Position numbers and translations under genes: made by a program
Shown: positions 19,064 to 58,465 of the stretch, piece after piece
Numbering within the stretch: the first letter of the stretch is position 1
Layout of the letters: each line of letters begins with the position of its first letter
DNA from: Virgibacillus doumboii
GTDB lineage: Bacteria; Bacillota; Bacilli; Bacillales; Amphibacillaceae
Length of the DNA stretch: 64,000 nucleotides
Assembly (NCBI RefSeq): GCF_902806455.1
Contig: NZ_CADCWQ010000001.1
Coordinates: 2,914,001 to 2,978,000, forward strand
Direction of reading: 5' to 3'
The notes under the pieces: model-generated
The model's input: only the letters and a program-made list of their open reading frames with translations
Told to the model about the DNA's origin: nothing
Databases searched by the model: none

Positions 19064-19145
19064 GAGGCATCACGTTTTGAGGGGGTGCTCGCATGTTTAA
19101 GAGGCGTACTCGCACGTTTGGGAGCCTTGCTCGAACATATAACAG
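19064..19145. repeat. intergenic array E: 21-nt degenerate tandem units
   Basis: Units begin at 19085, 19106 and 19127, exactly 21 nt apart, with a decayed unit at 19064. The shared pattern is GTNCTCGCAYGTTT followed by a purine-rich GAG. It lies in the 380-bp gap between convergent gsaB and ygaD, which otherwise holds only terminators. One of seven such arrays in the window. Confidence 0.7.
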
Positions 19146-19230
19146 TTTCCCACATGGCACCCACCACCGCATCCCCAAACCGTTTCATAAAGAAGTTTTT
19201 CGGCAGCAGCCGAAAATCAACATTATATAA

Positions 19231-19265
19231 AAATTAAAAACTCCCCCACATCTACCGTGGAGGAG
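19231..19265 (-). terminator. terminator of ygaD
   Basis: On the reverse strand CTCCTCCAC and GTGGGGGAG form a stem followed by TTTTT. Confidence 0.85.
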
Positions 19266-19281
19266 CTATAAATTAACTAAT

Positions 19282-21045
19282 TTAATTCTCATGATCATCC
19301 AAATTCTGTACCTGATATAAATCATAATAATGCCCTTTTCGTGCCATCAACTCGCTGTGTGATCCAATTTCTTTAATCTCACCATCTTCAATATGCACAA
19401 TCCGATCGGCATGTGTAATCGTGGCAAGACGGTGTGCGACGATAAATGTTGTGCGGTCGGATGCGAGTCGTTCCACAGCTTCCTGGATAATGTGTTCGCT
19501 TTCCAGATCGAGTGCGGATGTTGCTTCATCAAAAATCAGGATTGGCGGATTTTTTAAGAAAACCCGTGCAATCGCGATTCGCTGTTTTTGACCGCCGGAA
19601 AGTTTAACACCGCGCTCACCGACCAGTGTATCGTAACCATATTGCAGTTCTTGGATAAAGTCATGGGCATTTGCTGCTTTTGCTGCAGCAACTACCTCTT
19701 CGTCGGTTGCATCGGGGTTCCCCATCCGAATATTCATCGCAATGGACTCACTGAACAGCGTGTTATCCTGTAACACCATGCCGATATTATCTCTCAGCGA
19801 GCGGGCTTTCACATCGCGAATATCGGTGCCATCCACTCTTATTGACCCGCCCGCTACATCATAAAATCTTGGAATCAGGCTAATTAACGTTGACTTGCCG
19901 CCACCGCTCATTCCGACAAATGCTATTGTTTCACCCTGTCGAACCTGAAGGGATACATCCTGCAAAACAGGTCCTTCCTCTTCTTCATACTGGAATGTTA
20001 CATTGTCGATATCAACTTTTCCATCGACACGACCAAGTTCTTTTGCATCTTCCTTATCAACAATATCGTACTTTTCATTCATTAGTTCAAACACACGATC
20101 AATTGATGCAATCGACTGCGTCAGAACCGTTGAGGAACTGATCAATCGTCTAAGCGGGCTATAAACTCTATCCATATACCCATAAAATGCAGCCATTGTA
20201 CCTACTGTCATATTTCCTTCGATAACCTGATACCCGGCATACGCAATAACCAGTAATGGCGCCACGTCGGTAATCGTATTCATGACGGCGAACGTTTTGG
20301 CGTTCCAATCGGTATGGTTGAGCGCCTTCTGCAGAAAGTTTTCATTCCGTGAATCAAACTGGTCCTGCTCATAATCTTCCAATGCGAAACTTCTCGTTAC
20401 CGGAATTCCCTGAACACGCTCATGCAAATGCCCTTGCACCTCAGCAAGCGCCTGCGAACGTTCTCTTGTCAGTCTTCTGAGTCTTCCATAAAAGAATTTG
20501 ACACAGAATCCGAATATCGGGAACAAAATGATAGCAACAATCGTTAGGCCGACATCCATTGTCATCATAATTCCGATAGCAATCAAAATTGTAATCATAT
20601 CCAGCCAGATATTCATTAGTCCCGTAACTACAAATGTTTTCGTTTGTTCGACATCATGTATTACCCGGGAAATAATTTCCCCGGTTTTTGTCTGAGAATA
20701 GAACCGTAAACTCAATTTTTGGATATGGTCAAACAGCTTATCCCTTACATCATAAAGAATTGTGTTCCCGACCCATTGAGCTAAATATTGTCGAAAATAT
20801 TCAATCGGCGGACGTAGAATAAGAAATATCACAAATGCTCCGCCCATCAGCCAAAATAATTGCTCAATCTTTGCAGCATCCGACAAATCTTCCCCATTAA
20901 TTATATTGTCGATGACATACTTTAAAATCAGCGGCATCAGGAGCGGTATGCCAAACTTCAGGATCCCGATAAAAACGGTTATTAAAATTTTCCATTTATA
21001 TGGTTTAACAAATTGTAAATACTGCTTGATACTGCTCATTTTCAC
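19282..21045 (-). CDS. ygaD: ABC exporter half-transporter (YgaD-like)
   Basis: This 587-residue half-transporter has a six-helix membrane domain (about 15-310) fused to an ATPase. The ATPase has Walker [11 protein letters not shown], signature [14 protein letters not shown], Walker [13 protein letters not shown] and the switch His in VAHRL. It is of the MsbA/lipid and multidrug exporter type and should work as a homodimer. The substrate is not known. It matches B. subtilis YgaD in sequence and place (next to gsaB and ntdP). Confidence 0.92.
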
Positions 21046-21166
21046 TACGCTTCCTTATTATTTTTATTGAAAAGAAAATCCTTGCTACGTTTTTGTAACA
21101 AGGGACGATTCTTCACGCTTCTTGCATTATAAGACTTTACTCTCGGTTCTTCAATTAATTGAATTA

Positions 21167-21694
21167 TTATCTGTAGGTCAGATACCGTTCATACCATTGA
21201 TCGATAAAGTCTGGTGAAAAAGGACCTTTTCGCTGCCTTACCCAGTTTAATAAGTAATCCATATTTTTTTGCAAAATATGGTCGAGCACATCAGGGTAAT
21301 TCATTTGCTCCTTATGTTCCTCATATTCGTCTTCATCCAGCAAATCATACGTCATGTCAGGATATACTTTAACATCAAGATCATAATCAATGTATTTCAA
21401 TGTCCCTTCGTCGAAAACAAATGGCGAACTTATGTTACAGTAATAATGTATTCCATTATTACGGAGCATACCTATTATGTTAAACCAATATTCCGAATGA
21501 AAATAACTAATAGCGGGCTCGCGTGTTATCCAGGTTCGTCCGTCACTTTCATTTACAGGAGTTTTATCATTTGCACCAATTACGATCAATTCCGTACCCT
21601 TTAAAACGAGATTTTTTTCCCAAACACGGTGCAATTGTCCATTATGTTTGTAGCTTTGAATTTGCATTTTTGTTCCTGCCTGTGGGCCAGCCAT
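21167..21694 (-). CDS. ntdP: nucleoside tri- and diphosphate phosphatase (DUF402)
   Basis: This 175-residue protein of the YgaC/NtdP family hydrolyses nucleoside tri- and diphosphates. The signature stretch [17 protein letters not shown] (about 51-67), the metal-binding acidic cluster [12 protein letters not shown] and [10 protein letters not shown] are present. Length and start agree with characterised Firmicutes members. It sits next to ygaD as in B. subtilis. Confidence 0.92.
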
Positions 21695-21775
21695 GATATA
21701 TCTCTCCTTCTAAACACCGAAGCAAGCTTGTCCCTTTATTATACAGACAAAAAATAAATACATAAAGAAAAACAG

Positions 21776-21816
21776 AAAAAGAGCTCCCTGAGGCAGGAAG
21801 CTCTTTAAAGTGTCTA
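21776..21816 (-). terminator. terminator of sspE
   Basis: On the reverse strand AAAGAGCTTCCTG and CAGGGAGCTCTTT form a 13-bp stem followed by a T-rich tail. Confidence 0.85.
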
Positions 21817-21833
21817 AATCGGGGGTAGGCAAG

Positions 21834-22004
21834 TTATTTTTTGTTCTGCTTAGATTTTTGGTTCTGCTTTTTCACTTGTTGCGCGTTTGTTTCTGAAGCA
21901 AATTCAGTACCGTACTGACCTTGCCCTTGAGCTGCTTTTTGGTTTTGTTGTTTCACTTTTTGAACGTTTGTACCAGCAGCTGACTTTTTCGGTTGTTTAG
22001 CCAT
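21834..22004 (-). CDS. sspE: gamma-type small acid-soluble spore protein
   Basis: This 56-residue, Gln/Lys/Asn-rich protein is stored in the spore core and degraded during germination. The repeated pattern around NVQKVKQQNQK and AQQVKKQNQK, with the GPR-type cleavage-like stretch TEFASETNA between, identifies the family. Start ATG at 22004 follows GGAGGTGAT. Presence of this gene indicates an endospore former. Confidence 0.92.
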   Translation of the reverse strand: MAKQPKKSAAGTNVQKVKQQNQKAAQGQGQYGTEFASETNAQQVKKQNQKSKQNKK

Positions 22005-22170
22005 CAGTATCACCTCCGCAGTTATTAATCTTTCCATTATGGACGTTGTTATCCTGATAAATAATAGTTAAATTTATCTTCTATTGGTAAGAAATAACTG
22101 CAACACTCGTTAGGTATACTGAATTTTAATATGCATAAACTAAAAAGACAAGCTGTGTCTCTGAGGCATT

Positions 22171-22240
22171 TCATATCGGGTTGATATAATCCGTCTCGGG
22201 TCGATATAGCTGCTGTCGGGTTGATAATTCCATAACGGGG
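22171..22240. repeat. intergenic array A: 20-nt tandem units
   Basis: TCGGG starts at 22176, 22196 and 22216, exactly 20 nt apart. Each is followed by TYGATA, with variable bases after it. The first unit reads TCGGGTTGATATAATCCGTC. It lies about 30 bp past the 3' end of mutY, between mutY and sspE. Confidence 0.75.
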
Positions 22241-22270
22241 GTACATTTCCCGCAATCCACCTCAACAGCA

Positions 22271-23341
22271 TCAATCCATATACTTCATCATTTTCTGATG
22301 GGAAACCGGGAATGGATAGTCATCCAATTCATCATGATTCACAAAACGAATACGGTCGTCGTTGGCGCAGTCGCTATCTGTAGTCGCATCATAAATGTCA
22401 ATTTGCCAAATGATGTGTGAAAAAACATGTTTTAATTTCCCTTGTTTATTACCTATTTTAACGTTCACACCATATTCCATTTGGAACCAGTTTTCGATAT
22501 GTTCCATTCCAATCTCATTAATGGGGACCATCGGGAATTGCCACATGTTGGCCAACAGTCCGTTTTCAGAGCGTTTTTCAATTATATATTGTTTTTTTTC
22601 ATTTCGAATCAGCAATGTCACATATGGGATTGTTTTCTGTTTTTTTGCCTTTGATTTTACGGGAAGATCCTCTTCTATCCCTTCAGCAAATGCCCGGCAA
22701 TATTCCTGGACCGGACACAGCATGCACATCGGTGATTTTGGAGTACATACTAACGCACCAAGCTCCATAATTCCCTGGTTAAACGAAGATGGATCATCGT
22801 GCGAAATCAGTTCTTTGGTATAGCTTTCAAATTTCTTCTTCACTTTTGCCTTTGAAATGTCATCTTCTATCTTCAGAACACGGGAAAGTACCCGCATCAC
22901 ATTTCCATCTACAGCGGGTTCCGGCTGATTAAAGGCAATCGATAAAATAGCCCCTTTTGTATATGGGCCGACACCTTTTAATGCGCCCAAATCTTTAGAG
23001 TTATCCGGCACTTCACCACCATATGATTCAACAACTTCCCTAACTGCGTTTTGTAAGTTGCGTGCGCGGGAATAGTATCCCAGACCTTCCCATGTTTTTA
23101 AAACATCCTGCTGATCTGCATATGCTAAATCATAGAGTGTTGGATACTTTGTTAAAAAACGTTGAAAATAAGGAATAACCGTGTCGACTTTAGTTTGCTG
23201 CAGCATAATTTCGGATACCCATACTTTGTAGGGATCCTTATCCAGTCGCCACGGAAGGTCACGCTTATTGGCTTGATACCAGTCAATTAACTTTTCCTGA
23301 AATCCTGAAATGTCAAAATCCTGTAATGTTTTATCAGACAT
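22271..23341 (-). CDS. mutY: adenine DNA glycosylase MutY
   Basis: Removes adenine mispaired with 8-oxoguanine. The 356-residue protein has the helix-hairpin-helix GVGPYTKGAI (about 125-134), the catalytic Glu region WVSEIMLQQT and the catalytic Asp in EPAVDGNVMRV. The 4Fe-4S cluster motif is C-x6-C-x2-C-x5-C (CTPKSPMCMLCPVQEYC, about 198-214). A C-terminal NUDIX-like domain follows. It is divergent from yfhP, as in B. subtilis. Confidence 0.95.
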   Translation of the reverse strand: MSDKTLQDFDISGFQEKLIDWYQANKRDLPWRLDKDPYKVWVSEIMLQQTKVDTVIPYFQRFLTKYPTLYDLAYADQQDVLKTWEGLGYYSRARNLQNAVREVVESYGGEVPDNSKDLGALKGVGPYTKGAILSIAFNQPEPAVDGNVMRVLSRVLKIEDDISKAKVKKKFESYTKELISHDDPSSFNQGIMELGALVCTPKSPMCMLCPVQEYCRAFAEGIEEDLPVKSKAKKQKTIPYVTLLIRNEKKQYIIEKRSENGLLANMWQFPMVPINEIGMEHIENWFQMEYGVNVKIGNKQGKLKHVFSHIIWQIDIYDATTDSDCANDDRIRFVNHDELDDYPFPVSHQKMMKYMD

Positions 23342-23414
23342 ACTGTTACAACCTTTGTGTTAAAATTAATGATAGAGTACCATTTGTTTTGTCGAAGAAG
23401 GAGGACCCTGATTT

Positions 23415-24401: not shown

Positions 24402-24440
24402 ACAACAGCGCGGGAGGTGCCCCCGGGCTGTTGTTTTTTA
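24402..24440. terminator. bidirectional terminator between yfhP and yfhH
   Basis: AACAACAGC and GCTGTTGTT flank a GC-rich centre, with T runs on both strands. It serves convergent genes. Confidence 0.85.
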
Positions 24441-24443
24441 TGG

Positions 24444-25529: not shown

Positions 25530-25544
25530 GAGAACTTATCAAAT

Positions 25545-25706: not shown

Positions 25707-27947
25707 ATGAAGAAATTGTGGAAACTTGTCGCAGCCATTCTATTGGCCATTCCAATAGGCTTTTATGCAATTGGTTCTGGAACTGCAGAAGCTGCGGATA
25801 ACAGTAAGCCGGAACCGATTGATATTGGCCCGGAACTAAGGAAAGAAACCGTAAAGGAAGCGGACTTTGACAAATCGTCAATCCCTTTCAGATCTTTTAG
25901 TAACGGGCAATCCCAGGGTTATGAGCCTGTTCCGGGCACCGAGCGTTTATGGGTTGCTTTGGATCAGACGAAGGGACAGTATTATTTGAAGCCCTTTACA
26001 TTGAAAGCAGTTGGGGAACATGCAGAAATCTGGGTGGCGAATGATCGTAAGTTCCCACAGGAAAACCGAAATGATACCATTCAGATTACACAGGAACAAG
26101 TTGATTATATCCTCTCAGAAGTTGACAGTAACATCTATCCGACTGATACTGAATTTTTTGGTACGCCAAACTCCCATAGTGGTGAAAATGCATTGCTTGA
26201 AGGTCAATTGGGCGATAATTATTATGTCAGTCAGGACCAGAGTGACCGCAGTGTTATCTTAATAGATAACGTGAAGGACGAAAACTTCTATAATCCTGAT
26301 TTTCCAAGCTATGTTGCAGGTTTTTTCTCACAGGTTCTTGAACAGTACACAGACCGTAACATTATAACAATTGATTCATACGACTGGGCAAATCGTGTCG
26401 GTGATGATGCAGCAAATCCGAATCTGTATGAAGGTACCGTTGCACATGAATACCAGCATCTGATTCATGCTGATAATGATCCAGGCGAGGAAACTTGGAT
26501 TAACGAAGGGATGTCAGATTTTGCAGAATACCTTGTTGGCTATGGGCACCCGCAAGGACACATAGAAAGTTTTGCAGAGAAACCGGAGAACTCACTGGTT
26601 GCCTGGGAGGACCAGGGCCCAAGAGAAGTTTTAGCAGACTATGGAAATGCGTACTTATTTCAACTATATTTAAATGATCATTTTGGCGGGCAAGAATTTA
26701 TTCAAAATCTCGCCAAGAATAAATTACCGGGTATTAAAGGTGTAAATGATGCATTAAATGCGTTTGGCTATGATAAAACATTTGATGATGTTTATCGAGA
26801 TTACCAGACTGCACTTGTCATCGATGAAGAGCGCGAATTTGACGGCAAGTACGGTTTTACCAGTATTGACTTTACTGTGAACACCGGAACTGAACAGGCA
26901 TATGCTTCCGAGGGGGCACCTTCCTGGGGATCTGATTTCATTGAAATGCCGGTACAAGAAGATAAAGAACTATATTTTAATGGCCTTGATTTTATGCCAT
27001 TACAATGGGAATCAACGGCTGATCCGAAAGACAATTCCAATAAGGTACTCTGGGGTGGTACCGGTTCGCTTGTCGATCATTTCCTGGTCAGGGAATTTGA
27101 TTTGACGGGCACACAAAATCCGGAACTGACATTTGATACGTTTTACAATATTGAATCAACGTGGGATTATGGATTTGTGCAGATTTCCACGGACGGTGGT
27201 AAGACATGGACTTCACTTGCAAATGAAAATACCAAAGATGAAGTGAATGAGAGTGCACATCCTAAAGTCAAATCGAATGTACCGGGGTTCACCGGGGCAT
27301 CCAATGGCTGGACCACTCAATCATTTGACCTGAGCGAATATGCCGGTGAAAAAATTTTAGTTGGATTCCGCTATGTGACCGACTGGGCATCACAGGAAGC
27401 CGGCTGGTATATTGACAACATCCAGGTTGACGCTGTTTCATACAGTAATGATGGCAGCAGCACCGGTGATTTCAAAACACTGGATGAAGTGGTGAAAAAT
27501 TATGTCAACTACCTTGTCTCATTTATTAAAATCGAGGAAGACGATGATGAAACTGAGTATGAAGTGAAGGAAGTTGATCCACTTAATTTCACCAATGATG
27601 AGATGGTGGAACTAGAAAAATATATGGAAAGTGAAGATGATGAAAGAGTTATTATGACCGTGACTCACGGTGCACCGGATAACGGACTGAACAATGCCGC
27701 ATACAGTTATGAACTTCGTGAAGAAGATGACGAAGATGAGGACGATGATGACTGGGATGACGGTCATTGGGATGATGATGACCGGGACGATGGTGATCGG
27801 GATGACGGTGACTGGGACGACGGTCATTGGGATGACGATGACCATGACGATGGCAATCGGGATGATGATGACCGGGATGATGATGATCGGGGCGATGGTT
27901 ATTGGGATAACGATGACTGGGATCACGGTTATTGGTGGAGACGATAA
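25707..27947 (+). CDS. secreted metalloprotease (immune inhibitor A/M6-like) with Asp-rich tail
   Basis: This 746-residue exported protein has a signal peptide (1-29, cleavage after AEA). The peptidase domain has the zinc motif HEYQH at about residue 248 and a downstream NEGMSDFAEYL that can supply the third ligand. A beta-rich region (about 420-590) resembles the MAM-like domain of immune inhibitor A. The last 75 residues are an imperfect repeat of Asp with Gly, Trp, His and Arg. The tail may bind calcium or aid solubility in brine; that is inference. No cell-wall anchor is seen. AAAGGGG precedes the ATG and a strong terminator follows. Confidence 0.87.
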   Translation: MKKLWKLVAAILLAIPIGFYAIGSGTAEAADNSKPEPIDIGPELRKETVKEADFDKSSIPFRSFSNGQSQGYEPVPGTERLWVALDQTKGQYYLKPFTLKAVGEHAEIWVANDRKFPQENRNDTIQITQEQVDYILSEVDSNIYPTDTEFFGTPNSHSGENALLEGQLGDNYYVSQDQSDRSVILIDNVKDENFYNPDFPSYVAGFFSQVLEQYTDRNIITIDSYDWANRVGDDAANPNLYEGTVAHEYQHLIHADNDPGEETWINEGMSDFAEYLVGYGHPQGHIESFAEKPENSLVAWEDQGPREVLADYGNAYLFQLYLNDHFGGQEFIQNLAKNKLPGIKGVNDALNAFGYDKTFDDVYRDYQTALVIDEEREFDGKYGFTSIDFTVNTGTEQAYASEGAPSWGSDFIEMPVQEDKELYFNGLDFMPLQWESTADPKDNSNKVLWGGTGSLVDHFLVREFDLTGTQNPELTFDTFYNIESTWDYGFVQISTDGGKTWTSLANENTKDEVNESAHPKVKSNVPGFTGASNGWTTQSFDLSEYAGEKILVGFRYVTDWASQEAGWYIDNIQVDAVSYSNDGSSTGDFKTLDEVVKNYVNYLVSFIKIEEDDDETEYEVKEVDPLNFTNDEMVELEKYMESEDDERVIMTVTHGAPDNGLNNAAYSYELREEDDEDEDDDDWDDGHWDDDDRDDGDRDDGDWDDGHWDDDDHDDGNRDDDDRDDDDRGDGYWDNDDWDHGYWWRR

Positions 27948-28032: not shown

Positions 28033-28038
28033 ATGCTA

Positions 28039-30668: not shown

Positions 30669-31085
30669 ATGAGTTTGGAGAAAATGGCATATAACATAAA
30701 ATTCTTCCGGGAACTGAACGGCTGGACACAGGAAAAGCTGGCCGATAAGTTAAATATTTCCCGATATGCTGTGATACGGTGGGAAACGAACAAGGTAGTT
30801 CCGGATATTGAATCTCTGATAAAACTCAGCGAACTGTTTGATGTTACGATTGATCATATTGTTGGGAATCATTCGATTCGCGAGGATTTATTAAAAGACT
30901 TCAAACGCATTTACAGTTCCAAATCAAAATCTTTCGATGAAGAAGCTGTCGAATTGGTTGAATACTTAATGGAAAATCCGTCATTCAAGAAACAGATTTT
31001 CCGATTGCGTAATCTGCCAATCAAAAAGCAAAAATCTATTCATGATATGTTTGAAAATATAATTGAACAAATTGAGAAAATATAG
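30669..31085 (+). CDS. XRE-family transcriptional regulator
   Basis: This protein of about 138 residues has an N-terminal Cro/C1-type helix-turn-helix: the first 60 residues include LNGWTQEKLADKLNISRYAVIRWE and PDIESLIKLSELFDVTIDHI. The C-terminal half is helical and may dimerise. The start is uncertain between the ATG at 30669 and the one at 30684, which has TTGGAG in front. It is followed by its own terminator. Target genes are unknown. Confidence 0.88.
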   Translation: MSLEKMAYNIKFFRELNGWTQEKLADKLNISRYAVIRWETNKVVPDIESLIKLSELFDVTIDHIVGNHSIREDLLKDFKRIYSSKSKSFDEEAVELVEYLMENPSFKKQIFRLRNLPIKKQKSIHDMFENIIEQIEKI

Positions 31086-31114
31086 TTGAGTGAATAAATC
31101 ACTCAACTTTTTTA
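31085..31114 (+). terminator. terminator of the XRE regulator gene
   Basis: GTTGAGTGA-ATAAA-TCACTCAAC is followed by TTTTTT, starting at the stop codon. Confidence 0.9.
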
Positions 31115-31140: not shown

Positions 31141-31249
31141 GCCGAAGTTCACAAAGATTATGTCGAAGTTCACAGAAGAAAAGCCGAAGTTCACAATTGG
31201 TTTGCTTGAAGTTCACAATTAAAACGCCGAAGTTCACAACTTGTTCGCC
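31141..31249. repeat. intergenic array B: 21-nt tandem units with GAAGTTCACA core
   Basis: The invariant core GAAGTTCACA occurs five times, starting at 31144, 31165, 31186, 31208 and 31229 (steps 21, 21, 22, 21). It is preceded by GCC, GTC or GCTT and followed by variable AT-rich bases. It begins about 30 bp after the XRE terminator. The core is the reverse complement of the repeat in arrays C and D. Confidence 0.85.
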
Positions 31250-31590: not shown

Positions 31591-32499
31591 ATGACCCTGC
31601 TTACGGTCAACAATCTGACCAAAAAATTTAACGGCAAACCAGTGGTCAATCAAGTCAGCTTTCGGTTCCAGTCTGGCAAGTGCATTGCATTGATTGGACC
31701 AAATGGCGCGGGCAAAACAACGACATTACGCATGTTATCGGGATTAATTAAATTATCAGGCGGCTCTGTAACATTTGCCGAGATGAACAAAACTGATGAC
31801 AATCGGAAATATATTGGCTATCTCCCGCAATATCCTGTCTTCTACTCATGGATGACCGGAAAAGAATTTCTTGTTTATGTCGGGCAACTGGCGCATCTAT
31901 CAAAAGAGAAGGCGGTGAAACGTGCCGAATCCCTTTTGGAACGAGTTGGGCTGACTGAGGCAAAAAACCTCCGTATCGGAAAATATTCTGGCGGTATGAA
32001 ACAGCGGCTTGGAATCGCTCAAGCTATTATCCATCATCCTAAATTACTTATGCTTGATGAACCGGTATCGTCGCTTGACCCGATTGGCCGGCGCGAAGTA
32101 TTAACGTTAATGGAAGAGCTGAAAGAGGATATGACGATTTTATTTTCCACTCACATTTTAGGTGATGCGGATGAAGTAAGTGATGAATTGGTGTTGTTAC
32201 ATGATGGGCGAATCGTTGAATCAGGTTCCATGGACGAACTTCGCCGCAAATACCAAACATCAAAAATTGAACTTGGTTTTCAGGAGGAAGCCGAAAATTA
32301 TCAGGCCAAAATTGAGAATCTATCATCCGTGGAAAATTGTTATCTGGAGCGGGCTGCAATTCATGTCACAGCCAAAGATATTGATTTGGCAAGAAAAGAA
32401 ATTCTCACAGCCGCTGTAAATGAGGAATGGCCGCTAACCGACTTTTCCGTAAGCCGTGCATCACTGGAAGACATGTTTATGAAGGTGGTGAACAGCTAA
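31591..32499 (+). CDS. yxlF: ABC transporter ATPase (YxlF-like)
   Basis: This 302-residue ATPase belongs to the CcmA/drug and bacteriocin exporter class. Walker A is GPNGAGKTTTLR (about 36-47), signature YSGGMKQRLGIAQA (about 134-147), Walker B LLMLDEPVSSLD and switch His STHIL. The last 80 residues form the usual accessory domain. It starts directly after the yxlE-like stop and overlaps the permease start by one base. Confidence 0.93.
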   Translation: MTLLTVNNLTKKFNGKPVVNQVSFRFQSGKCIALIGPNGAGKTTTLRMLSGLIKLSGGSVTFAEMNKTDDNRKYIGYLPQYPVFYSWMTGKEFLVYVGQLAHLSKEKAVKRAESLLERVGLTEAKNLRIGKYSGGMKQRLGIAQAIIHHPKLLMLDEPVSSLDPIGRREVLTLMEELKEDMTILFSTHILGDADEVSDELVLLHDGRIVESGSMDELRRKYQTSKIELGFQEEAENYQAKIENLSSVENCYLERAAIHVTAKDIDLARKEILTAAVNEEWPLTDFSVSRASLEDMFMKVVNS

Positions 32500-33275
32500 T
32501 GCAGTGGATGACACTTTTTAAAAAAGAATTCATTGAGAACATGCGAAATTTCAAATGGATCTGGGTACCGCTTGTTTTGATTTTAATCTCAATCATGGAC
32601 CCGATTTCAAGCTATTATTTACCGCAAATCATTGATGCTGTCGGCGGCATGCCTGAGGGTACTGAATTCCAGCTCCCTGAGATACAACCAAGCGACGCGA
32701 TTAGGATGAGTCTATCGCAAATGAGTTTAATTGGGGTAGCCGTAATTGTACTGATGTCGATGGGGACAATTTCTGGAGAACGAAAAAGCGGTGTTTCCGA
32801 ACTTGTTTTGGTTAAGCCAGTTTCCTATGCCAATTACATAACGGCAAAATGGGCGTCCATATTGCTGCTGACACTCGCATCATTTGCAGTGGGGATTTTG
32901 GCCAGCTGGTACTACGTGAACTTATTATTCGGTGACCTATCGTTTGGAGCACTTCTGCAAATATTTTTCTTTTATGGATTATGGCTGGCACTAGTCGTAT
33001 CATTATCCATTTTTTACAACACGATTGTTAAAATACCCGGACTTGTAGCATCTTGCACCATAGCTACAATCATAGTAATGAAACTGATTACAACTATTTT
33101 CGGTCATTTATTGGAATGGAGTCCCAACAACATATCAGGTTATATTCAGCAAATGCTCGTCTCAGGCAGTGTTCCGTCGGAGTTAACCGGAGCTGCGATT
33201 GTAACAGCTGTAATGATCGTTTTACTTGTTATTGGATCAATTTATACGTTTAAAAATAAAGAATTGGCGAATTAA
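32499..33275 (+). CDS. yxlG: ABC-2 type permease (YxlG-like)
   Basis: This 258-residue integral membrane protein has six predicted helices, with the conserved cytoplasmic GERKSGVSELVLVKPVSYANYITAKW typical of ABC-2 exporters (given at about 88-113). Start ATG shares an A with the ATPase stop, and AAGGTGGTG precedes it. It forms the membrane channel with the YxlF-like ATPase. The substrate is unknown; gene order suggests toxic peptides or envelope stress. Confidence 0.9.
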   Translation: MQWMTLFKKEFIENMRNFKWIWVPLVLILISIMDPISSYYLPQIIDAVGGMPEGTEFQLPEIQPSDAIRMSLSQMSLIGVAVIVLMSMGTISGERKSGVSELVLVKPVSYANYITAKWASILLLTLASFAVGILASWYYVNLLFGDLSFGALLQIFFFYGLWLALVVSLSIFYNTIVKIPGLVASCTIATIIVMKLITTIFGHLLEWSPNNISGYIQQMLVSGSVPSELTGAAIVTAVMIVLLVIGSIYTFKNKELAN

Positions 33276-33333
33276 AAGTAGCCGGTAAAAAAGAGTTTTA
33301 TCAAAAGAAAAATCCGAACTAACTTGAAAGTGG

Positions 33334-33602
33334 TGCAAACAACCGCTCCGGAAATATACTGTGGTGCTCGTCGTGTTGCAAGTGATTTCGGAGAAGAAGC
33401 ACTCCTCGCAACTCGAAGCTTACTCGGTAGATGTTTCGCTCGTCGCTTTCCGCGGGCGGTTGTTGAGCCTCCTTGCGCTCGACGTATTGCAAGTGATTTC
33501 GGGGATGTTCCACTCCTCGCAGAAAAGATCCTACCGCGCTGCGGAATCTCATCCAGGCCTTTCCCCCCGCAGGAGTCTACGTATATTTCCTACGCTTGAC
33601 CC
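33334..33602. repeat. dispersed repeat element with two internal cassettes
   Basis: The element of about 260 bp runs from CCGCTCCGGAAATATACTG to GTATATTTCCTACGC, with inverted ends. Its body has CGCTTTCCGCGGGCGG and GCAGGAGTC as in the copy at 11546. Inside are two copies of a cassette of about 45 bp (33367-33410 and 33478-33520), each GTNTTGCAAGTGATTTCGG...CACTCCTCGCA. The same cassette occurs in the tRNA cluster at 634-679. No gene is seen in 33276-33686. Confidence 0.75.
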
Positions 33603-33654
33603 GTGCATTGTTCGCTTCTTTCCCTGCACTTTTTTGTTATGTCCCAGCATCAAC

Positions 33655-33686
33655 TTAAAAAGGACTGGCGCACCAGTCCTTTTTAA
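33655..33686. terminator. bidirectional terminator
   Basis: TTAAAAAGGACTGG-CGCA-CCAGTCCTTTTTAA is a perfect hairpin with A and T runs, just beyond the stop of the 33687 gene. Confidence 0.9.
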
Positions 33687-36489: not shown

Positions 36490-36612
36490 AAATTGTGAAC
36501 TTGAGCCGAAAATTTGTGAACTTGAGCGAGATATCTGTGGACTTGAGCGATTGCGGTAAATGGAGCCACCATGAACTTGAGCCCATTCTGTGACAGTTTG
36601 AGCGAATGACAT
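36490..36612. repeat. intergenic array C: 21-nt tandem units with TGTGAACTTGAGC core
   Basis: Units start at 36494, 36515 and 36536 (exact 21-nt steps) with core TGTGRACTTGAGCG; more decayed units follow near 36571 and 36590. It lies between the terminator of the SPFH operon and the GntR gene. The core matches arrays B (reversed) and D. Confidence 0.85.
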
Positions 36613-36678: not shown

Positions 36679-36712
36679 AAAAAAACTCTGCACCTTAAAC
36701 AGTGCAGAGCCG
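36679..36712 (-). terminator. terminator of the RHH/SPFH operon
   Basis: On the reverse strand CTCTGCAC (36702-36709) and GTGCAGAG (36686-36693) form a stem followed by TTTTTTT. Confidence 0.88.
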
Positions 36713-38804: not shown

Positions 38805-38850
38805 GGATGTGTATTTGCTTCTCGGGCCGATGTTTCCTTTCTTCTGCCGA
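38805..38850. repeat. intergenic array G: two 21-nt units
   Basis: TCGGGCCGATGTTTCCTTTC is followed 21 nt later by TCTGCCGAT. Both units match the second repeat type of array F and, more loosely, array A. It lies directly beyond the clpE terminator. Confidence 0.55.
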
Positions 38851-51683: not shown

Positions 51684-51805
51684 CTTTTCTGCCTATGTTT
51701 CTGCTGTTTCTGCCGATGTTTCTGCTGTTCTGCCGATGTAAGCGCTGTGGGGATATTTTTATTCTCCGGTCGATATGCTCACGTTTCTGGTTGATGCTCA
51801 CGCTG
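51684..51805. repeat. intergenic array F: two types of 20-21-nt units
   Basis: TTTCTGCC units start at 51686, 51707 and 51727 (steps 21 and about 20), each followed by NATGTTTCTGCTG or a decayed form. Further on, CCGGTCGATATGCTCACG and CTGGTTGATGCTCACG form two units 20-21 nt apart resembling arrays A and E. It fills much of the 400-bp gap between yfkD and the antiporter gene and joins the two sequence types in one place. Confidence 0.75.
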
Positions 51806-52722: not shown

Positions 52723-52806
52723 GTGTCCCATCCTTTCCTGTTGCTTGTCTGGATTGCTGGTTATTTGTTAGTTTTTTCGGACACATGAATATTATACCTA
52801 TTATAT

Positions 52807-53199: not shown

Positions 53200-53353
53200 C
53201 GTTATCACTCCTTGGGAATTAATATCATCTATATTACTGTTTAACCTTTATAGCACAACCTGTAACATCTTTTAAAGCATAATGTTTCCGGTTTGACCTT
53301 TTCCGCGAAACCAATTACATTAAAAAGCAAAATGGTTAATGGGAGGAAACGAA

Positions 53354-54538
53354 TTGGCTGCATCAGTAAAAACAAGATTTTGGATATTAATTTCTCTCGT
53401 TTCCATCTCGGGATTCTCACAAGGAATGCTGCTTCCTTTGTTGGCTATTATCCTGGAAAAGAATGGTGTCCCTTCATCGGTGAATGGACTGCATGCGACC
53501 GGTTTATACATAGGTGTACTTATAGCTTCTCCTTTCATGGAAAAACCGATGCGTAAATTCGGTTTCAAACCGATTATCGTCGTTGGCGGCATGCTTGTAT
53601 TCATTTCTTTGCTGTTGTTCCCGTTCTGGCAGGCGTTATGGTTCTGGTTTATTTTAAGGGTAACGGTCGGGATCGGTGACAACATGCTGCATTTTGGGAC
53701 CCAGACATGGATCACGACAACGAGTCCGAAAGATTCACGCGGAAAAAATATCGCTTTCTACGGTATGTTTTTTGGACTTGGATTCACGCTGGGTCCTTTA
53801 ATGACACAGTTACTTTCCGTCCATGAAGCATTACCTTTTCTATTGTCAGCACTTCTTAGTATGGTCGTTTGGTCGTTGATGTTTTTTGTGCGGAACCAGA
53901 TGCCTGAAGCAGAGGACGTTGGTACAGGTGCCAAAACCAGTTCAATAGGAAGATTCATACAAACCGGCAAAATTGCCTGGGTGGCACTGCTTCCTGCATT
54001 CGGCTATGGATTTTTGGAAGCAACGCTGCACGGTATTTTTCCTGTCTACGGATTGCGGATCGGACATGAAGTTGCCATGCTGTCGCTGATCATACCTTGT
54101 TTTGCTGCCGGGAGCCTTATTACACAGATCCCATTGGGCATAATGAGTGACCGTTACGGAAGAAGAAATATTCTGCTAACCGTTCTGTCAGCCGGAATCA
54201 TATGTTTTCTGATTGCCGCACTGCTGGAAACCTCGGCTATTGCACTATTCATAACCTTTGCGCTGGCAGGTATGTTTATCGGTTCATTATTTTCATTAAG
54301 TATTTCGTTTTTGGCGGATATTTTACACCCATCATTATTACCGGCCGGAAACCTGATGACAGGAATTGCATTCAGTATTGGAAGTATTATCGGACCGTAC
54401 ATTGGTGGACTGTTTATCGAATACTTTCCCGGGATTTCATTCTTTTATGTTATTGTCTTTATGCTTGTTATTATTTTGGCCGCGACATATTTTAAAAAGA
54501 ATGCTGGAACAAAAATGGACACTCAAGCCCAAAGCTGA
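53354..54538 (+). CDS. yfkF: YfkF-like MFS transporter
   Basis: This protein of about 394 residues has twelve predicted helices and the MFS loop motifs GVLIASPFMEKPMRKFGFKP and QIPLGIMSDRYGRRNILL (repeats in both halves). It corresponds to B. subtilis YfkF in place and type. Start is TTG at 53354, eight bases after GGAGG; the ATG 15 bases upstream lies before that site. The substrate is unknown; drug or sugar efflux is typical of the group. Confidence 0.85.
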   Translation: MAASVKTRFWILISLVSISGFSQGMLLPLLAIILEKNGVPSSVNGLHATGLYIGVLIASPFMEKPMRKFGFKPIIVVGGMLVFISLLLFPFWQALWFWFILRVTVGIGDNMLHFGTQTWITTTSPKDSRGKNIAFYGMFFGLGFTLGPLMTQLLSVHEALPFLLSALLSMVVWSLMFFVRNQMPEAEDVGTGAKTSSIGRFIQTGKIAWVALLPAFGYGFLEATLHGIFPVYGLRIGHEVAMLSLIIPCFAAGSLITQIPLGIMSDRYGRRNILLTVLSAGIICFLIAALLETSAIALFITFALAGMFIGSLFSLSISFLADILHPSLLPAGNLMTGIAFSIGSIIGPYIGGLFIEYFPGISFFYVIVFMLVIILAATYFKKNAGTKMDTQAQS

Positions 54539-54552
54539 GTGCCCTTTTTTTA
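54519..54552. terminator. terminator between yfkF and the ABC permease gene
   Basis: CACTCAAGC-CCAAA-GCTGAGTG pairs with one bulge and is followed by CCCTTTTTTT. The convergent genes may share it. Confidence 0.75.
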
Positions 54553-55236
54553 TAAAAATCTGCTGTACCTTGCTTCCAACCGGTCCTGCATAAATGAAAT
54601 AACAACACATATCGGCCAGTAAATGAATGCGACCAATATATACAATGTCATCGCATCGAATTCCCTGCCAACAACAATCTGTGTCCGCTGAAACAATTCC
54701 GGGACGGTAATGACCGCTGCCAGCGATGTTGCTTTGACAATATCCATAAACACATTGGTCAGCGGCGGGATTGCAATTCTTGTCGCCTGCGGTAAAATAA
54801 CTTTCCGTAATGTTTTCCAGTAGCCTAAATTAAGCGATTTGGCTGACTCCCACTGACCACTTTCAATACTATTTAATGATGCCCGGTTAATTTCTGCTAT
54901 ATAGGCTGCACTGTTCAGTCCAAAACCGACCGATGCTGCAGTCAGTGCAGACAATTCCAATCCGGCATAAGGCAAACCAAAATACAGTATAAAAAGAAAG
55001 ACTAATATCGGTGTGCCGCGCATAAAGGAAATATACACGCGTGCCGGCCATCGTAAAATAATCCTCTTTGAGCTGCGTGCCAAGGCCAAAAACAAGCCCA
55101 ATACCATACCGATTGTAAATCCAGCCAGTGCAACACCGAGAGTTGCCGGTAGTCCTCCCAATACGAAAGGAAGACTTTCCAGTGCCAGTTCCACATCAAA
55201 GACTCTGCCGAAATCAAACCCATTTAGATTAATCAT
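54550..55236 (-). CDS. polar amino-acid ABC transporter permease
   Basis: This 228-residue HisM-type permease has about five membrane helices. The conserved GLNSAAYIAEINRASLNSIESGQWESAKSLN lies in the middle (given at about 106-136) and is the ATPase contact loop of the family. Its gene begins six bases after the binding protein gene. No ATPase gene is adjacent, as with B. subtilis yckAB; it may use a shared ATPase. The ligand is probably a polar amino acid or cystine. Confidence 0.9.
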   Translation of the reverse strand: MINLNGFDFGRVFDVELALESLPFVLGGLPATLGVALAGFTIGMVLGLFLALARSSKRIILRWPARVYISFMRGTPILVFLFILYFGLPYAGLELSALTAASVGFGLNSAAYIAEINRASLNSIESGQWESAKSLNLGYWKTLRKVILPQATRIAIPPLTNVFMDIVKATSLAAVITVPELFQRTQIVVGREFDAMTLYILVAFIYWPICVVISFMQDRLEARYSRFL

Positions 55237-55242
55237 CTTTTT

Positions 55243-56115
55243 TTACAAATCCAATCCTTCAATTTCTTTTATTTCCCCTTCAGGCTTTTTGGAAGCATCT
55301 TCTTTGTAAAACTTTGTGGCAAGTTTTGTTAATGTTCCATCTTCACGCATTTCACTCAATACGTTGTTTACTTTTTCTGTTAGTTTATCGGCGCCTTTAG
55401 GTAAAACCGCTGCCTGCTCGGTTGGATGAAATTTCAATTCCGGATGCAGCATGATATCAAATTCAGGAAATGCAGCTACTCCAAATTTGGACAAATAATA
55501 ATCATTAACGATTACATCGGACCTGCCGTTATGTACATCACGCAGATAAGCTTCATTCGGAGCGTTTCCGTAAGTTTTCACCTCCGCTCCAAAATGTCTG
55601 GCAATTTCACTGTAAACGGTTGTCGCTCCACCGCCGGCAACTTTACCTTCCAGATCCTCCAGGGAATCTATGCCGGAATAGTCCCCTTTACGTACGACCA
55701 TCGTAGAATAGGAATATTTATAAGGCGTACTGAAATTAAATTCCTCTTTACGCTTACTCGTTATTTCAATATCATTTGCAGCCACATCAATTCTTCCGCT
55801 CTTAATAGCCGGCAGCATACTGTCAATCCCCATAATTTCAAATGAAACATCCAGGTCAAGGCGTTTTGCTGCTTCTCTCATTACTTCAACGTCATAACCG
55901 GTTAATTGATCTTTGGTTTCCCCTTCACCATCATAATAAGAAGCAGCAATAAGCGTACCGGACGTTCCAACAACCAGTTCACCGGATTCCTGAATTTCAG
56001 CCCATTTTCCGTCTTCTGATCCGCTGCTTTCTGAATTTCCTCCATTGTCGACACCGCAAGATGCCAAAACGAAAAGTGTTGCGATTAATAGAAACACTAA
56101 TTTCCTGCTATACAC
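55243..56115 (-). CDS. amino-acid-binding lipoprotein of ABC transporter
   Basis: This protein of about 290 residues is a solute-binding lipoprotein with signal sequence and lipobox LASCG. A type 3 amino-acid-binding domain follows, visible as GTLIAASYYDGEGETKDQLTGYDVEVM and DVAANDIEITSKRKEEFNFS. GTG at 56115 is eight bases after AAAGGGG and is preferred over the GTG at 56124. Ligand unknown (cystine or polar amino acid likely). It is the first gene of a two-gene operon with the permease. Confidence 0.9.
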   Translation of the reverse strand: MYSRKLVFLLIATLFVLASCGVDNGGNSESSGSEDGKWAEIQESGELVVGTSGTLIAASYYDGEGETKDQLTGYDVEVMREAAKRLDLDVSFEIMGIDSMLPAIKSGRIDVAANDIEITSKRKEEFNFSTPYKYSYSTMVVRKGDYSGIDSLEDLEGKVAGGGATTVYSEIARHFGAEVKTYGNAPNEAYLRDVHNGRSDVIVNDYYLSKFGVAAFPEFDIMLHPELKFHPTEQAAVLPKGADKLTEKVNNVLSEMREDGTLTKLATKFYKEDASKKPEGEIKEIEGLDL

Positions 56116-56253
56116 AAAACACACCCCTTTATTAGTTGTTATATTATAATTTCAATAATGATTGTAACAGTAAAACATGTCCATTTCAATATAATAACAT
56201 ATCTGTTTATATAGTTATAAATACCTGTATTAATTTGGCGAAAAAAACACTTC

Positions 56254-56284
56254 TTGACTTTATTTAATCTGATGTTAATATAAT
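56254..56284 (+). promoter_or_regulatory. candidate promoter of the zosA-like gene
   Basis: TTGACT (56254-56259) and TATAAT (56279-56284) are 19 bp apart, slightly long. A perfect Per box follows 13 bp downstream. Confidence 0.5.
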
Positions 56285-56297
56285 AATAAATATTTAT

Positions 56298-56312
56298 TTA
56301 TAATAATTATAA
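56298..56312. promoter_or_regulatory. perfect Per box upstream of the zosA-like gene
   Basis: TTATAATAATTATAA matches the PerR consensus TTATAATNATTATAA exactly. It lies just downstream of the candidate promoter and 16 bp before the ATG, so PerR should repress this gene until peroxide stress. Confidence 0.92.
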
Positions 56313-56328
56313 TCTGGAGGTTAGCGAA

Positions 56329-58263
56329 ATGACGACAGATTCGAAAACACTAGGTCCGCCAGAATCACATATATTCAAGACACCATTCTTGTCCATCCAG
56401 TTCAAGCACATCAGAAAGCACGCGGAAATAATAGCAGCTTTATTCAGCGGATTACTTATTCTCATTACCTGGGCACTGGGTGACAGCATCCCATCTGCTC
56501 TATGGGTGACTATGCATCTGACTGCTTTTGTTATTGGAGGGTATGCAAAAGCAAAAGAAGGAATTCAGGAAACGATAGCAAACAAAGAGCTGAATGTAGA
56601 AATGCTGATGATCTTCGCTGCAATCGGGTCAGCCGCCATCGGTTACTGGACAGAAGGAGCCATTTTAATTTTCATATTTGCACTATCCGGTGCACTTGAA
56701 ACTTACACGATGCAAAAAAGTAATAAAGAAATATCTTCCCTGATGGATTTACAGCCGGAGCAAGCATTACGCATAACGAACGGGCAGGAAAAAATCGTTC
56801 CCGTTTCCGAGCTTGGACTTGACGACATAATTCTTGTTCGGGCAGGGGAGCGTATTCCTGCTGACGGGGTCATTGTGAAGGGAGCAACAGCTATTGATGA
56901 AAGTGCAATCACCGGAGAATCGGTGCCGGTCAGCAAGCTGAACAACAATGATGTTTTTGCCGGAACCGTTGCACTTGATGGATCAATTTCAGTGAAAATA
57001 ACAAAGCCCGCAAATGAGACACTCTTCCAAAAGATTATTCAACTGGTTCAATCGGCGCAGGAAGAAAAGTCTCCATCCCAATTGTTTATCGAGCGTTTTG
57101 AAGGAACCTATGTAAAAGTGGTCCTGGCAACTGTCGCTGTCATGATGTTTTTACCAAATTTCCTTTTTGGGTGGTCATTATCTGAAAGTATTTACCGGGC
57201 AATGATTCTGTTAGTTGTTGCCTCACCCTGTGCGCTGGTTGCATCAATCATGCCCGCAACATTATCCGCTATTTCCAACAGTGCGAAAAACGGGGTCCTG
57301 TTCAAGGGTGGTGTTCATGTTGAAAATCTGAGCCATGTTAAGGCAATCGCATTTGATAAAACAGGTACATTAACGAATGGGACACCTGAAGTTACCGATG
57401 CCTATATGGACCCTAATTTGGATAAGGAAAAAGTTTTGGCCATAGCTGGGGCAATTGAAAAAGAATCTACACATCCTCTTGCACAGGCAATCACAGCATA
57501 CAGCGAAACAAACTGGTCTGGCGCTACGCCGGCTATCGGACAGGTGACAACATTAAGTGGTAACGGTGTATCTGCCTATGTTAATAATGAGAAATGGGAA
57601 ATTGGCAAGGCTGCTTTCGTTGGCAAACAGAAAGCCTTCGAATTTCAGAATGGGATAGCTGAAACGCTTGCCAGGGAAGGTAAAACAGTAGTATTCGTAA
57701 AATATAATGATAAAATTGCAGCACTTTTCGCATTGAAGGATTCCATCAGATACGATACAAAAATAGCGATTAATACGTTAAAAAAACATGGCGTCCATAC
57801 GGTAATGCTGACAGGAGACAATGAAAAAACCGCTAAAGCAATCGCCCGTGAAGCTGGAATTGATCATTATATCGCTGAATGCCTGCCGGAGGAAAAAGTG
57901 GACCAGGTGAAAAAACTGCGGACAGATTATGAGAATGTCGCAATGGTCGGTGACGGCATTAATGATGCGCCTGCATTGGCAAGTGCAAACCTCGGAATCG
58001 CAATGGGCAAAGGTACCGATGTCGCCCTGGAAACTGCCGACGTTGTCTTAATGAAAAATGACCTGCCAAAAATAACCAATGCCATTCAATTATCGCGCCG
58101 TATGAATAAAGTGGTTAAGCTGAATGTTGTCTTTTCACTTGGGGTAATTCTTTTACTAATCGCATCCAACTTCCTGCAGGTGCTTGATTTGCCATTGGGC
58201 GTAATCGGTCATGAAGGCAGTACCATTCTGGTTATATTAAATGGCCTGAGATTGTTGAAATGA
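56329..58263 (+). CDS. zosA: ZosA-like P1B-type metal-transporting ATPase
   Basis: This 644-residue metal pump has no N-terminal metal-binding repeat. About eight membrane helices carry the membrane motif SPC (ASPCALVASIMPA, about 302-314) where most P1B pumps have CPC. The phosphorylated Asp is in AFDKTGTLTNG (about 343), with HPLAQAI and GDGINDAPAL. The SPC variant and a Per box are features of B. subtilis ZosA, a PerR-controlled pump linked to zinc uptake in peroxide stress. Metal and direction are inferred by similarity. Confidence 0.88.
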   Translation: MTTDSKTLGPPESHIFKTPFLSIQFKHIRKHAEIIAALFSGLLILITWALGDSIPSALWVTMHLTAFVIGGYAKAKEGIQETIANKELNVEMLMIFAAIGSAAIGYWTEGAILIFIFALSGALETYTMQKSNKEISSLMDLQPEQALRITNGQEKIVPVSELGLDDIILVRAGERIPADGVIVKGATAIDESAITGESVPVSKLNNNDVFAGTVALDGSISVKITKPANETLFQKIIQLVQSAQEEKSPSQLFIERFEGTYVKVVLATVAVMMFLPNFLFGWSLSESIYRAMILLVVASPCALVASIMPATLSAISNSAKNGVLFKGGVHVENLSHVKAIAFDKTGTLTNGTPEVTDAYMDPNLDKEKVLAIAGAIEKESTHPLAQAITAYSETNWSGATPAIGQVTTLSGNGVSAYVNNEKWEIGKAAFVGKQKAFEFQNGIAETLAREGKTVVFVKYNDKIAALFALKDSIRYDTKIAINTLKKHGVHTVMLTGDNEKTAKAIAREAGIDHYIAECLPEEKVDQVKKLRTDYENVAMVGDGINDAPALASANLGIAMGKGTDVALETADVVLMKNDLPKITNAIQLSRRMNKVVKLNVVFSLGVILLLIASNFLQVLDLPLGVIGHEGSTILVILNGLRLLK

Positions 58264-58285
58264 TCTATTCCAGGCGTTAATCAAA

Positions 58286-58324
58286 AAAATCCCGATTACC
58301 TTAAAGGTGGTCCGGGATTTTTTA
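58286..58324 (+). terminator. terminator of the zosA-like gene
   Basis: AATCCCGATTACC-TTAAA-GGTGGTCCGGGATT is followed by TTTTT. Confidence 0.88.
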
Positions 58325-58359
58325 ATATTTGTGCTTTCTCTCCTATGAAGGTGGGGTGA

Positions 58360-58465
58360 AATGTGAACTTGAGCGGGTAATTTGTGAACTTAAGCGAAAA
58401 AATTGTGAACTTGGGCGAAAATCCTTTCATCTTGAGCGGATTCTGTGACAACTTGAGCGAAAAGC
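58360..58465. repeat. intergenic array D: 21-nt tandem units with TGTGAACTTGAGCG core
   Basis: Units start at 58362, 58383 and 58404 (exact 21-nt steps) with core TGTGAACTTRRGCG. A changed fourth unit starts at 58425 and a fifth at 58444. The core equals that of array C and is the reverse complement of array B. It lies between convergent zosA and yfkH, about 60 bp from the yfkH stop. Confidence 0.85.

What the first reader, a model, noticed from the sequence alone, without database searches (positions are those of the whole stretch)
19064..58465. Seven intergenic arrays of 20-22-nt units at gene 3' ends, all readable in one orientation
Seven gaps hold imperfect tandem repeats with a 20-22-nt step: array E 19064-19145, A 22171-22240, B 31141-31249, C 36490-36612, G 38805-38850, F 51684-51805 and D 58360-58465. 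B, C and D share one core (GAAGTTCACA in B; its reverse complement within TGTGAACTTGAGCG in C and D). A, F, G and E are linked by TCKGGYYGAT and GCTCRCRYGTTT. The step is close to two DNA turns. All seven lie just past the 3' end of a gene (mutY, the XRE gene, the RHH/SPFH operon, clpE, yfkD; ygaD and yfkH in the convergent gaps), several right after a terminator. None lies in a divergent promoter region. Read in the direction of that gene, B, C and D all give AAGTTCACA, and A, E, F and G also agree with each other. This regularity suggests selection, for example phased binding of a protein to DNA, a 3'-end RNA element, or a transcription barrier. I know of no described family with these properties.
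Basis: partly seen in the sequence, partly recalled or inferred. Interest (0 to 1): 0.85.

Follow-up and report, generated by a model that had tools for sequence, protein, structure and literature searches.

The report
One-way repeat arrays marking chromosome arms
A salt-tolerant Bacillus relative carries many short DNA arrays, repeated every two helix turns at gene ends, that mostly point from the replication origin towards the terminus and were not found near the terminus; they look like a previously undescribed set of one-way DNA marks, function not yet proven.

Summary
The arrays are real, genome-wide and far beyond chance. Intergenic self-match peaks at 20 and 21 nt in this genome (14 and 18 of 490 gaps; shuffles 0.2 and 0.8) and in ten congeners. 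Core types include F1 (TGTGAACTTNRGCG, step 21), S20 (ATCRRCMSRA, step 20) and F5 (AACTCGCGCGA). Cores are conserved between neighbouring units while linkers are not, yet spacing stays almost always at 20-22 or its multiples, with no inverted neighbours. That fits phased DNA sites under selection, not plain slippage.

The orientation rule differs: polarity follows the replication leading strand in 47 of 50 sampled arrays; 5 of 6 beside lagging-strand genes side with replication, not the gene. Window array B is an exception. Arrays are missing from about 0.9 Mb around the terminus; the terminus lies in the largest array-free interval in 5 of 5 genomes, unusually large in three. Array places are conserved between species while units change.

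Best reading: polar, phased protein-binding arrays in chromosome organisation (inferred, 0.4). Main rival: replication-oriented dispersal of a selfish repeat (0.3).

The parts
19064..19145 (-). Array E: 3 units, step 21, GC-rich F5-type (AAACGTGCGAGCA on the - strand), convergent gap
   Evidence: TRF 19085-19133; lag 21 score 17; polarity agrees with the leading frame, but on only 2 informative pairs
22171..22240 (-). Array A: 3 units, step 20, S20-type (TATCRACCCGA on -), 44 nt after the mutY stop
   Evidence: S20 whole-genome hits C1:2936176 and 2936196
31141..31249 (+). Array B: 5 units, step 21-22, F1-type (GCCGAAGTTCACA on +); follows its lagging-strand gene, an exception to the leading-strand rule
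   Evidence: minority polarity (C1:2945139: 2 pairs same, 18 opposite)
36490..36612 (-). Array C: F1-type (GCTCAAGTTCACA on -), step 21, behind the terminator-like hairpin 36711-36684
   Evidence: orthologous gap holds arrays in G002 and G007
38805..38850 (-). Array G: 2 units, S20-type, just behind clpE; orthologous gap holds arrays in G001, G002, G007
   Evidence: S20 exact hit C1:2952822
51684..51805 (-). Array F: S20-type (AACATCGGCAGA on -), step 20-21, behind yfkD; orthologous gap holds arrays with other units in G001, G006, G007, G010
58360..58465 (-). Array D: 5 units, step 21, F1-type (CGCTCAAGTTCACA on -), one unit the TGTGACAACTT variant, convergent gap
31084..31108 (+). Terminator-like hairpin in front of array B
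36684..36711 (-). Terminator-like hairpin in front of array C

Best explanation
The arrays are rows of one-way (non-palindromic) DNA sites set two helix turns apart, so that successive cores face the same side of the DNA. SHOWN: fixed 20-22-nt spacing, conserved core with free linker, several core types with the same architecture, a place at gene 3' ends, polarity along the replication leading strand rather than with transcription, absence around the terminus, conserved locations with changing units. INFERRED: a dedicated sequence-specific protein per core type binds cooperatively along the row and forms a directional nucleoprotein patch. Because most patches point from origin to terminus and stop short of the terminus, they most likely work in chromosome organisation or segregation (a positional mark of the origin-side arms, as Noc or SlmA sites are, but with a direction), placed at gene ends where they disturb no promoter. 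Neither the protein nor the process has been identified.
For: Period peak. Core versus linker: neighbouring F1 units, found by their core, agree at 88-97% in TGTGAACTT and at 35-52% in the eight linker columns; with only GAACTT as seed, the unseeded TGT columns agree at 96-100% and linkers at 29-54%, 57 pairs. Spacing: F1 21 in 58 and 22 in 4 neighbour pairs, the other 15 at 42-44 or 63; S20 20 in 46, 40 in 8, 3 others (21, 37, 41); inverted neighbours 0; reversed cores none. Polarity: without using motifs 47 of 50 sampled arrays; among printed whole-genome places S20 33 of 33 arrays (lists capped) and F1 28 of 35 places. Leading strand from GC skew, origin confirmed by dnaA at C2:120647. In G007 17 of 17 S20 arrays counted agree. 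Most cores tested are not leading-biased inside genes, e.g. ATCGGCAG 28/24, AGTTCACA 14/13. The 51/52-nt arrays of the same genome sample have no polarity (55 against 48 pairs). Terminus zone +-0.5 Mb: 4 arrays against 14.3 expected by gap type and length. The largest array-free interval (1.270-2.173 Mb) holds the terminus; with rows thinned to 20 kb an interval that large came up in 1 of 5000 simulations, thinned to 50 kb in 22 of 5000; G007 0.011 and G011 0.009 with thinned rows. Orthologous gaps: 11 of 45 have an array where the window has one, 0 of 104 where it has none.
Against: No binding protein was identified and no binding measured. Several unlike cores in one genome would need several proteins or one with loose specificity. 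F1 has 7 of 35 discordant places and window B besides; by F1 alone replication and gene rules cannot be separated. G011 has 2 of 7 discordant S20 arrays; G002 2 of 9 F1 places. In G024, another genus, only 6 of 9 tested places agree with local GC skew. Some words of the cores are leading-biased in genes: GAAGTTCA 45/22, GCAGAAGA 41/10. Some arrays are nearly perfect repeats (e.g. in L037, L047, L050), as recent duplication gives. The array-free interval is not significant in G004 and G002 (P 0.13-0.19). Divergent gaps do hold arrays in G007 (2 of 44 gaps), in G002 (1) and in G024 (1 of 5 stretches). The interval at the terminus was noticed before it was tested.
Confidence: 0.4

Rival explanations
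1. Selfish or neutral repeats. Units spread as single-stranded copies that enter the lagging-strand template at the fork, which fixes their direction to replication; slippage then lengthens the row; selection only removes rows from promoters and genes.
For: Explains polarity without function, unit turnover and very long near-perfect rows. Orientation bias to replication is known for single-strand mobile elements (recalled). Array numbers differ widely between species (0 to 839 hits in 159 genomes).
Against: Conserved core beside diverged linkers at unchanged spacing points to selection. Does not explain absence around the terminus. Conserved locations, 11 of 45 against 0 of 104. Target duplications and transposases were not searched for.
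Confidence: 0.3
2. Directional guide for a motor or a one-way barrier for replication forks: a KOPS/SRS-like signal for FtsK/SpoIIIE, or Tus/RTP-like sites that pass forks from the origin and stop forks that overrun the terminus.
For: A fork or translocase going from origin to terminus meets most rows in the same sense. Some S20 units contain GAGAAG or GAAGAAG, near the SRS repeat GAGAAGGG quoted in PMC5869595 (passages) and a Lactococcus KOPS (recalled).
Against: Rows are missing near the terminus, where KOPS/AIMS should be densest (PMC5993296, passages), and reach close to the origin (C2:29139, about 0.09 Mb from dnaA), where a fork trap is pointless. F1 and F5 cores contain no such motif. 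GAGAAGGG itself is rare in the sample (10 in coding, 11 in gaps without array).
Confidence: 0.13
3. 3'-end RNA element, terminator back-up or transcription barrier.
For: Rows start a median 54 nt behind the stop against 124 nt before the next gene (31 co-directional rows); B and C lie behind a terminator-like hairpin.
Against: Polarity ignores the gene: 5 of 6 rows in lagging-strand gaps side with replication. No RNA structure beyond shuffles in the five rows folded. No Rfam match in the window arrays.
Confidence: 0.1
4. By-product of general strand composition: purine-rich leading strands make any repeat look polar.
For: GC skew is strong and S20 is purine-rich; GCAGAAGA (41/10) and GAAGTTCA (45/22) are leading-biased in genes too.
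Against: The other core words tested are near even in coding DNA or too rare to say; F1 is not G-rich in the leading frame (by eye); the 51/52-nt arrays are unpolarised.
Confidence: 0.03

Closest known systems
REP/BIME elements
   Same: Extragenic, many copies, regularly spaced units, binding sites for proteins, no coding
   Different: REPs are imperfect palindromes and alternate in orientation in BIMEs (PMC2817692, passages); here units are head to tail with 0 inverted neighbours and polarity along the replichore
AIMS / KOPS / SRS (leading-strand polar octamers)
   Same: Leading-strand polarity
   Different: AIMS by definition increase towards the terminus (PMC5993296, passages); these arrays are absent there and are phased rows in gaps
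Noc-binding sites (Bacillus) and SlmA-binding sites
   Same: Dozens of sites over most of the chromosome, absent from the terminus region
   Different: NBSs are palindromic, about 70 discrete sites (PMC4331003, passages); here one-way phased rows of several core types
Iterons and other repeated initiator-binding sites
   Same: Direct repeats about two helix turns apart (recalled)
   Different: Those sit at one origin (recalled); here rows are scattered over both arms
MIRU/VNTR minisatellites
   Same: Intergenic tandem rows that vary in copy number (recalled)
   Different: No conserved core beside free linker and no replichore polarity described to my knowledge (recalled)

Membership tests
REP/BIME | imperfect palindrome in each unit and alternating orientation | tested here: not met
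   0 inverted neighbours for the cores tested; five rows fold no better than shuffles
AIMS/KOPS | leading-strand bias | tested here: met
   47 of 50 sampled arrays; F1 28 of 35 places
AIMS/KOPS | abundance rises towards the terminus | tested here: not met
   4 arrays against 14.3 expected within 0.5 Mb of the terminus
Noc/SlmA site set | absent from the terminus region | tested here: met
   (interval unusually large in 3 of 5 genomes)
Noc/SlmA site set | palindromic site (stated for Noc) | tested here: not met
   cores are polar, seen directly
Noc/SlmA site set | bound by a nucleoid occlusion protein | not testable with these tools
   needs binding data
Replication fork trap (Ter/RTP) | polar sites in one sense for forks from the origin | tested here: met
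   polarity
Replication fork trap (Ter/RTP) | sites flank the terminus and arrest forks | tested here: inconclusive
   nearest arrays 0.4-0.5 Mb from the terminus; arrest not testable
CRISPR array | repeats of about 23 nt or more with spacers of similar size (recalled) | tested here: not met
   10-14-nt core, 20-22-nt step
Rfam RNA families | covariance-model match at gathering score | tested here: not met
   only rRNA and tRNA in the window
Slippage minisatellite | all positions of neighbouring units equally alike | tested here: not met
   a few near-perfect rows such as in L037, L047, L050 would meet it

The most novel reading that the evidence does not exclude
A chromosome-wide one-way address system: rows of helically phased, protein-read sites, several 'dialects' per genome and changing between species while their locations stay, that tell DNA-bound machines which way the terminus lies and mark the origin-side arms.
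Probability: 0.33. Interest if true: 0.92.

Novelty: categorically new. Interest (0 to 1): 0.76.

Why it matters
Known polar chromosome marks (KOPS, SRS, AIMS) are short scattered words, and AIMS grow denser towards the terminus; known terminus-avoiding Noc sites have no direction. Rows that are both directional and terminus-avoiding, kept in place while their letters change, would be a new kind of chromosome landmark. They would also show how a whole set of DNA sites can be rewritten together between species. Even under the selfish reading, dispersal so tightly tied to fork direction would be an unusual mobile process. Both readings can be tested in a halotolerant laboratory strain.

Tried and rejected
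RNA element: rejected as main reading because of polarity and lack of fold. Coding extension: disfavoured, the step is 20 as often as 21 and varies within rows. Gene-direction rule: tested against the leading-strand rule, 5 of 6 rows in lagging-strand gaps side with replication; F1 alone cannot separate the rules. Composition bias: tested on 15 words. General property of intergenic arrays: the 51/52-nt arrays serve as control, no polarity. Searches used a two-unit pattern with a step of 20 instead of 21 by my mistake and say nothing about distribution; replace them. One search failed (file names) and was rerun. The dif pattern was recalled from B. subtilis and hit 3 of 5 genomes (0, 2 and 3 mismatches). 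The gene caller is my own script, looked over in the window only. One gap with an AT-rich chance-like match (L032, divergent) was dropped from the 51 before counting. Labels 'conv ... gene=ANTIlead' printed are a bug of my script and were ignored. Lists of places are capped by the tool, so '33 of 33' counts printed arrays only. Tallies from lists leave out isolated single hits with 2 mismatches, and two isolated 1-mismatch hits in G007 that disagree (3096169 and 3281993), as chance (reversed-pattern control there 1). The F1 count is over all 54 printed hits (35 places); one weak 3-mismatch hit at 2115808 lies in the terminus interval, is counted as agreeing in the 28 of 35, and was left out of the interval test as probable chance. 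Positions were typed from lists and cover S20 and F1 only; one search repeats the test for the own genome with all sampled rows added. In the orthologous-gap test array G was labelled by hand, gap length was not matched, and the G011 case at locus A looks like a mobile-element fragment.
Full report
OBSERVATION. The seven arrays are present; G has two units only. In 490 gaps of at least 50 nt from the window and 40 even stretches, self-match at lag 20 occurs in 14 gaps and at lag 21 in 18; dinucleotide shuffles give 0.2 and 0.8. In 286 gaps of ten congeners the figures are 7 and 9 against 0.1 each in block shuffles.

UNIT TYPES. The main types share one architecture: F1 TGTGAACTTNRGCG + 7 nt (step 21), S20 ATCRRCMSRA + 10 nt (step 20), F5 AACTCGCGCGA (20-21), with further relatives such as ATCAGGAGAAG, CCGGGAGAGA and ATGGGCCGGAG. 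Between neighbouring F1 units found by their core, TGTGAACTT agrees at 88-97% and the eight linker columns at 35-52%. To avoid circularity I seeded with six letters only: with GAACTT at step 21 (57 pairs), the unseeded TGT columns agree at 96, 96 and 100%, the NRGCG columns at 45-73%, linkers at 29-54%. S20 seeds (25, 20 and 16 pairs) give a similar but less clean contrast. Spacing of neighbouring cores: F1 21 (58), 22 (4), 42-44 (14), 63 (1); S20 20 (46), 21 (1), 37 (1), 40 (8), 41 (1); no inverted neighbours; reversed cores give nothing. Linkers have diverged while their length is kept; this fits selection on core and helical phase. A few rows are nearly perfect throughout and must be recent.

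PLACE. In 61 sequences (1.264 Mb) there are 760 gaps; 51 pass the threshold, 50 after dropping one AT-rich chance-like match. Divergent 1 of 139, convergent 18 of 105, co-directional 31 of 516 (divergent against rest P 0.0005; convergent against co-directional P 0.0005). In the 31 co-directional rows the median distance is 54 nt behind the stop and 124 nt before the next gene; 21 of 31 lie nearer the stop. In G007 the counts are co-lead 5 of 158, convergent 4 of 34, divergent 2 of 44, co-lag 0 of 30; in the ten syntenic congener regions 1 of 15 passing gaps is divergent. So avoidance of divergent gaps is not absolute.

POLARITY. GC skew changes sign at about 1.77 Mb of C1 (terminus) and about 0.12 Mb of C2 (origin); dnaA lies at C2:120647. 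I turned all 50 rows into the leading frame and compared all pairs on both strands without using motifs: 295 pairs are clearly more alike in the same direction, 59 in the opposite one. Three rows (C1:186035, 729600 and window B) have a minority polarity and take part in 50 of the 59, so 47 of 50 agree, some on few informative pairs. In convergent gaps 16 of 18 agree. Of six rows beside lagging-strand genes, five follow replication and one (window B) follows the gene. In the whole genome, printed S20 rows agree in 33 of 33 (lists capped) and F1 places in 28 of 35 (all 54 hits, counted). F1 alone does not separate gene from replication. In G007 17 of 17 S20 rows and 5 of 6 F1 rows agree; in G011 5 of 7 S20 and 8 of 9 F1; in G004 5 of 5 F1; in G002, contig C7, 7 of 9 F1. 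In G024, a different genus with 839 hits, 6 of 9 places agree with local skew; one disagrees strongly and two weakly. Controls: the 51/52-nt arrays show no polarity (55 same, 48 opposite pairs); among 15 words tested most core words are near even inside genes, but GAAGTTCA (45/22) and GCAGAAGA (41/10) are leading-biased there.

TERMINUS. Within 0.5 Mb of the terminus there are 4 rows against 14.3 expected from gap type and length; 14 consecutive sampled stretches (1.32-2.12 Mb) have none. The largest array-free interval is 1.270-2.173 Mb in G000 and holds the terminus; an interval that large came up in 0 of 5000 simulations with 86 rows, 1 of 5000 with rows thinned to 20 kb and 22 of 5000 thinned to 50 kb (one weak F1 hit at 2.116 Mb left out). 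The largest interval also holds the terminus in G002, G004, G007 and G011; simulated P with all or thinned rows is 0.003 or 0.011 in G007, 0.003 or 0.009 in G011, and not significant in G004 (0.14) and G002 (0.13 or 0.19). Chance that five termini all fall inside such intervals: 0.007. The interval was noticed before it was tested.

EVOLUTION. In syntenic regions of ten congeners orthologous gaps hold a row in 11 of 45 cases where the window has one and in 0 of 104 where it has none (P 7e-7; gap length not matched; the G011 case at locus A looks like a mobile-element fragment). Units differ: at locus F G010 has TTCTGTTGATGTTCGCGCTC, G006 GGGCTGAAGTTTTGCTTTTC and G007 GCCCATGTTTGCGATTTCGA; at locus C F1 runs the other way in G007 and G001 than in the window. 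F1 two-unit rows occur in 30 of 159 genomes of the family and all 12 of the genus, two of these with one hit; S20 in 72 of 159 at up to one mismatch, many with single chance-like hits. A named scan for exact F1 pairs gave 16 loci, all in Oceanobacillus bengalensis, Lentibacillus and Virgibacillus (the tool may leave out the own and near genomes).

INTERPRETATION. Fixed phase and conserved core point to proteins on DNA. Polarity tied to replication rather than transcription, and absence at the terminus, point to chromosome organisation. The nearest distribution is that of Noc and SlmA sites (PMC4331003, passages); Noc sites are palindromic. The nearest polarity is that of AIMS/KOPS (PMC5993296, passages), which increase towards the terminus. 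The strongest rival is a selfish repeat that enters DNA at the fork in one direction; it does not explain the terminus interval or the core/linker contrast.

LITERATURE. Eight searches aimed at such repeats in open-access PMC papers showed no description in their listings; subscription papers and preprints are largely not held. Two more searches were for KOPS/SRS and Noc. One Virgibacillus genome paper that mentions tandem repeats was checked by passages, which only name the method and define the term (PMC10556750).

Noticed in passing
e.g. L037:12805-13064, L063:7407-7761, L192 (C1:2647361), L203 (C2:157672), L202 (C2:92993): A second class of intergenic tandem rows with a 51-52-nt step (five helix turns), some units with hairpins (GCGGACATATTTTCCGC, TCATCGATAGAGCGCGTCTCACGATGA); 31 gaps of the sample pass the threshold, no replichore polarity, present in the terminus zone (L063).
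   Followed up: partly
L046:3428-7139 (C1 about 963-967 kb): CRISPR-like array with repeat GTTATATCTGAACATAGTGGGATATAAAG and 64-68-nt step.
   Followed up: no
G024 (another genus of the family): Extreme case with 839 S20 two-unit hits, rows of 20 and more units, one of the rows seen in a divergent gap, weaker polarity.
   Followed up: partly
syntenic regions of ten congeners: Extra self-match at lags 33-36 in several gaps, perhaps another repeat class.
   Followed up: no
window arrays C, D; L201 (C2:29139); L203 (C2:151254); several congeners: F1 rows often contain a variant unit TGTGACAACTTNAGC in place of TGTGAACTTNRGC at unchanged step.
   Followed up: no
window 27740-27923: Twelve 15-nt tandem coding repeats (GGATGATGATGACCG) inside ORF 25707-27947.
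   Followed up: no
window 33276-33686: 111-nt direct repeat in the convergent gap behind ORF 32499-33275.
   Followed up: no
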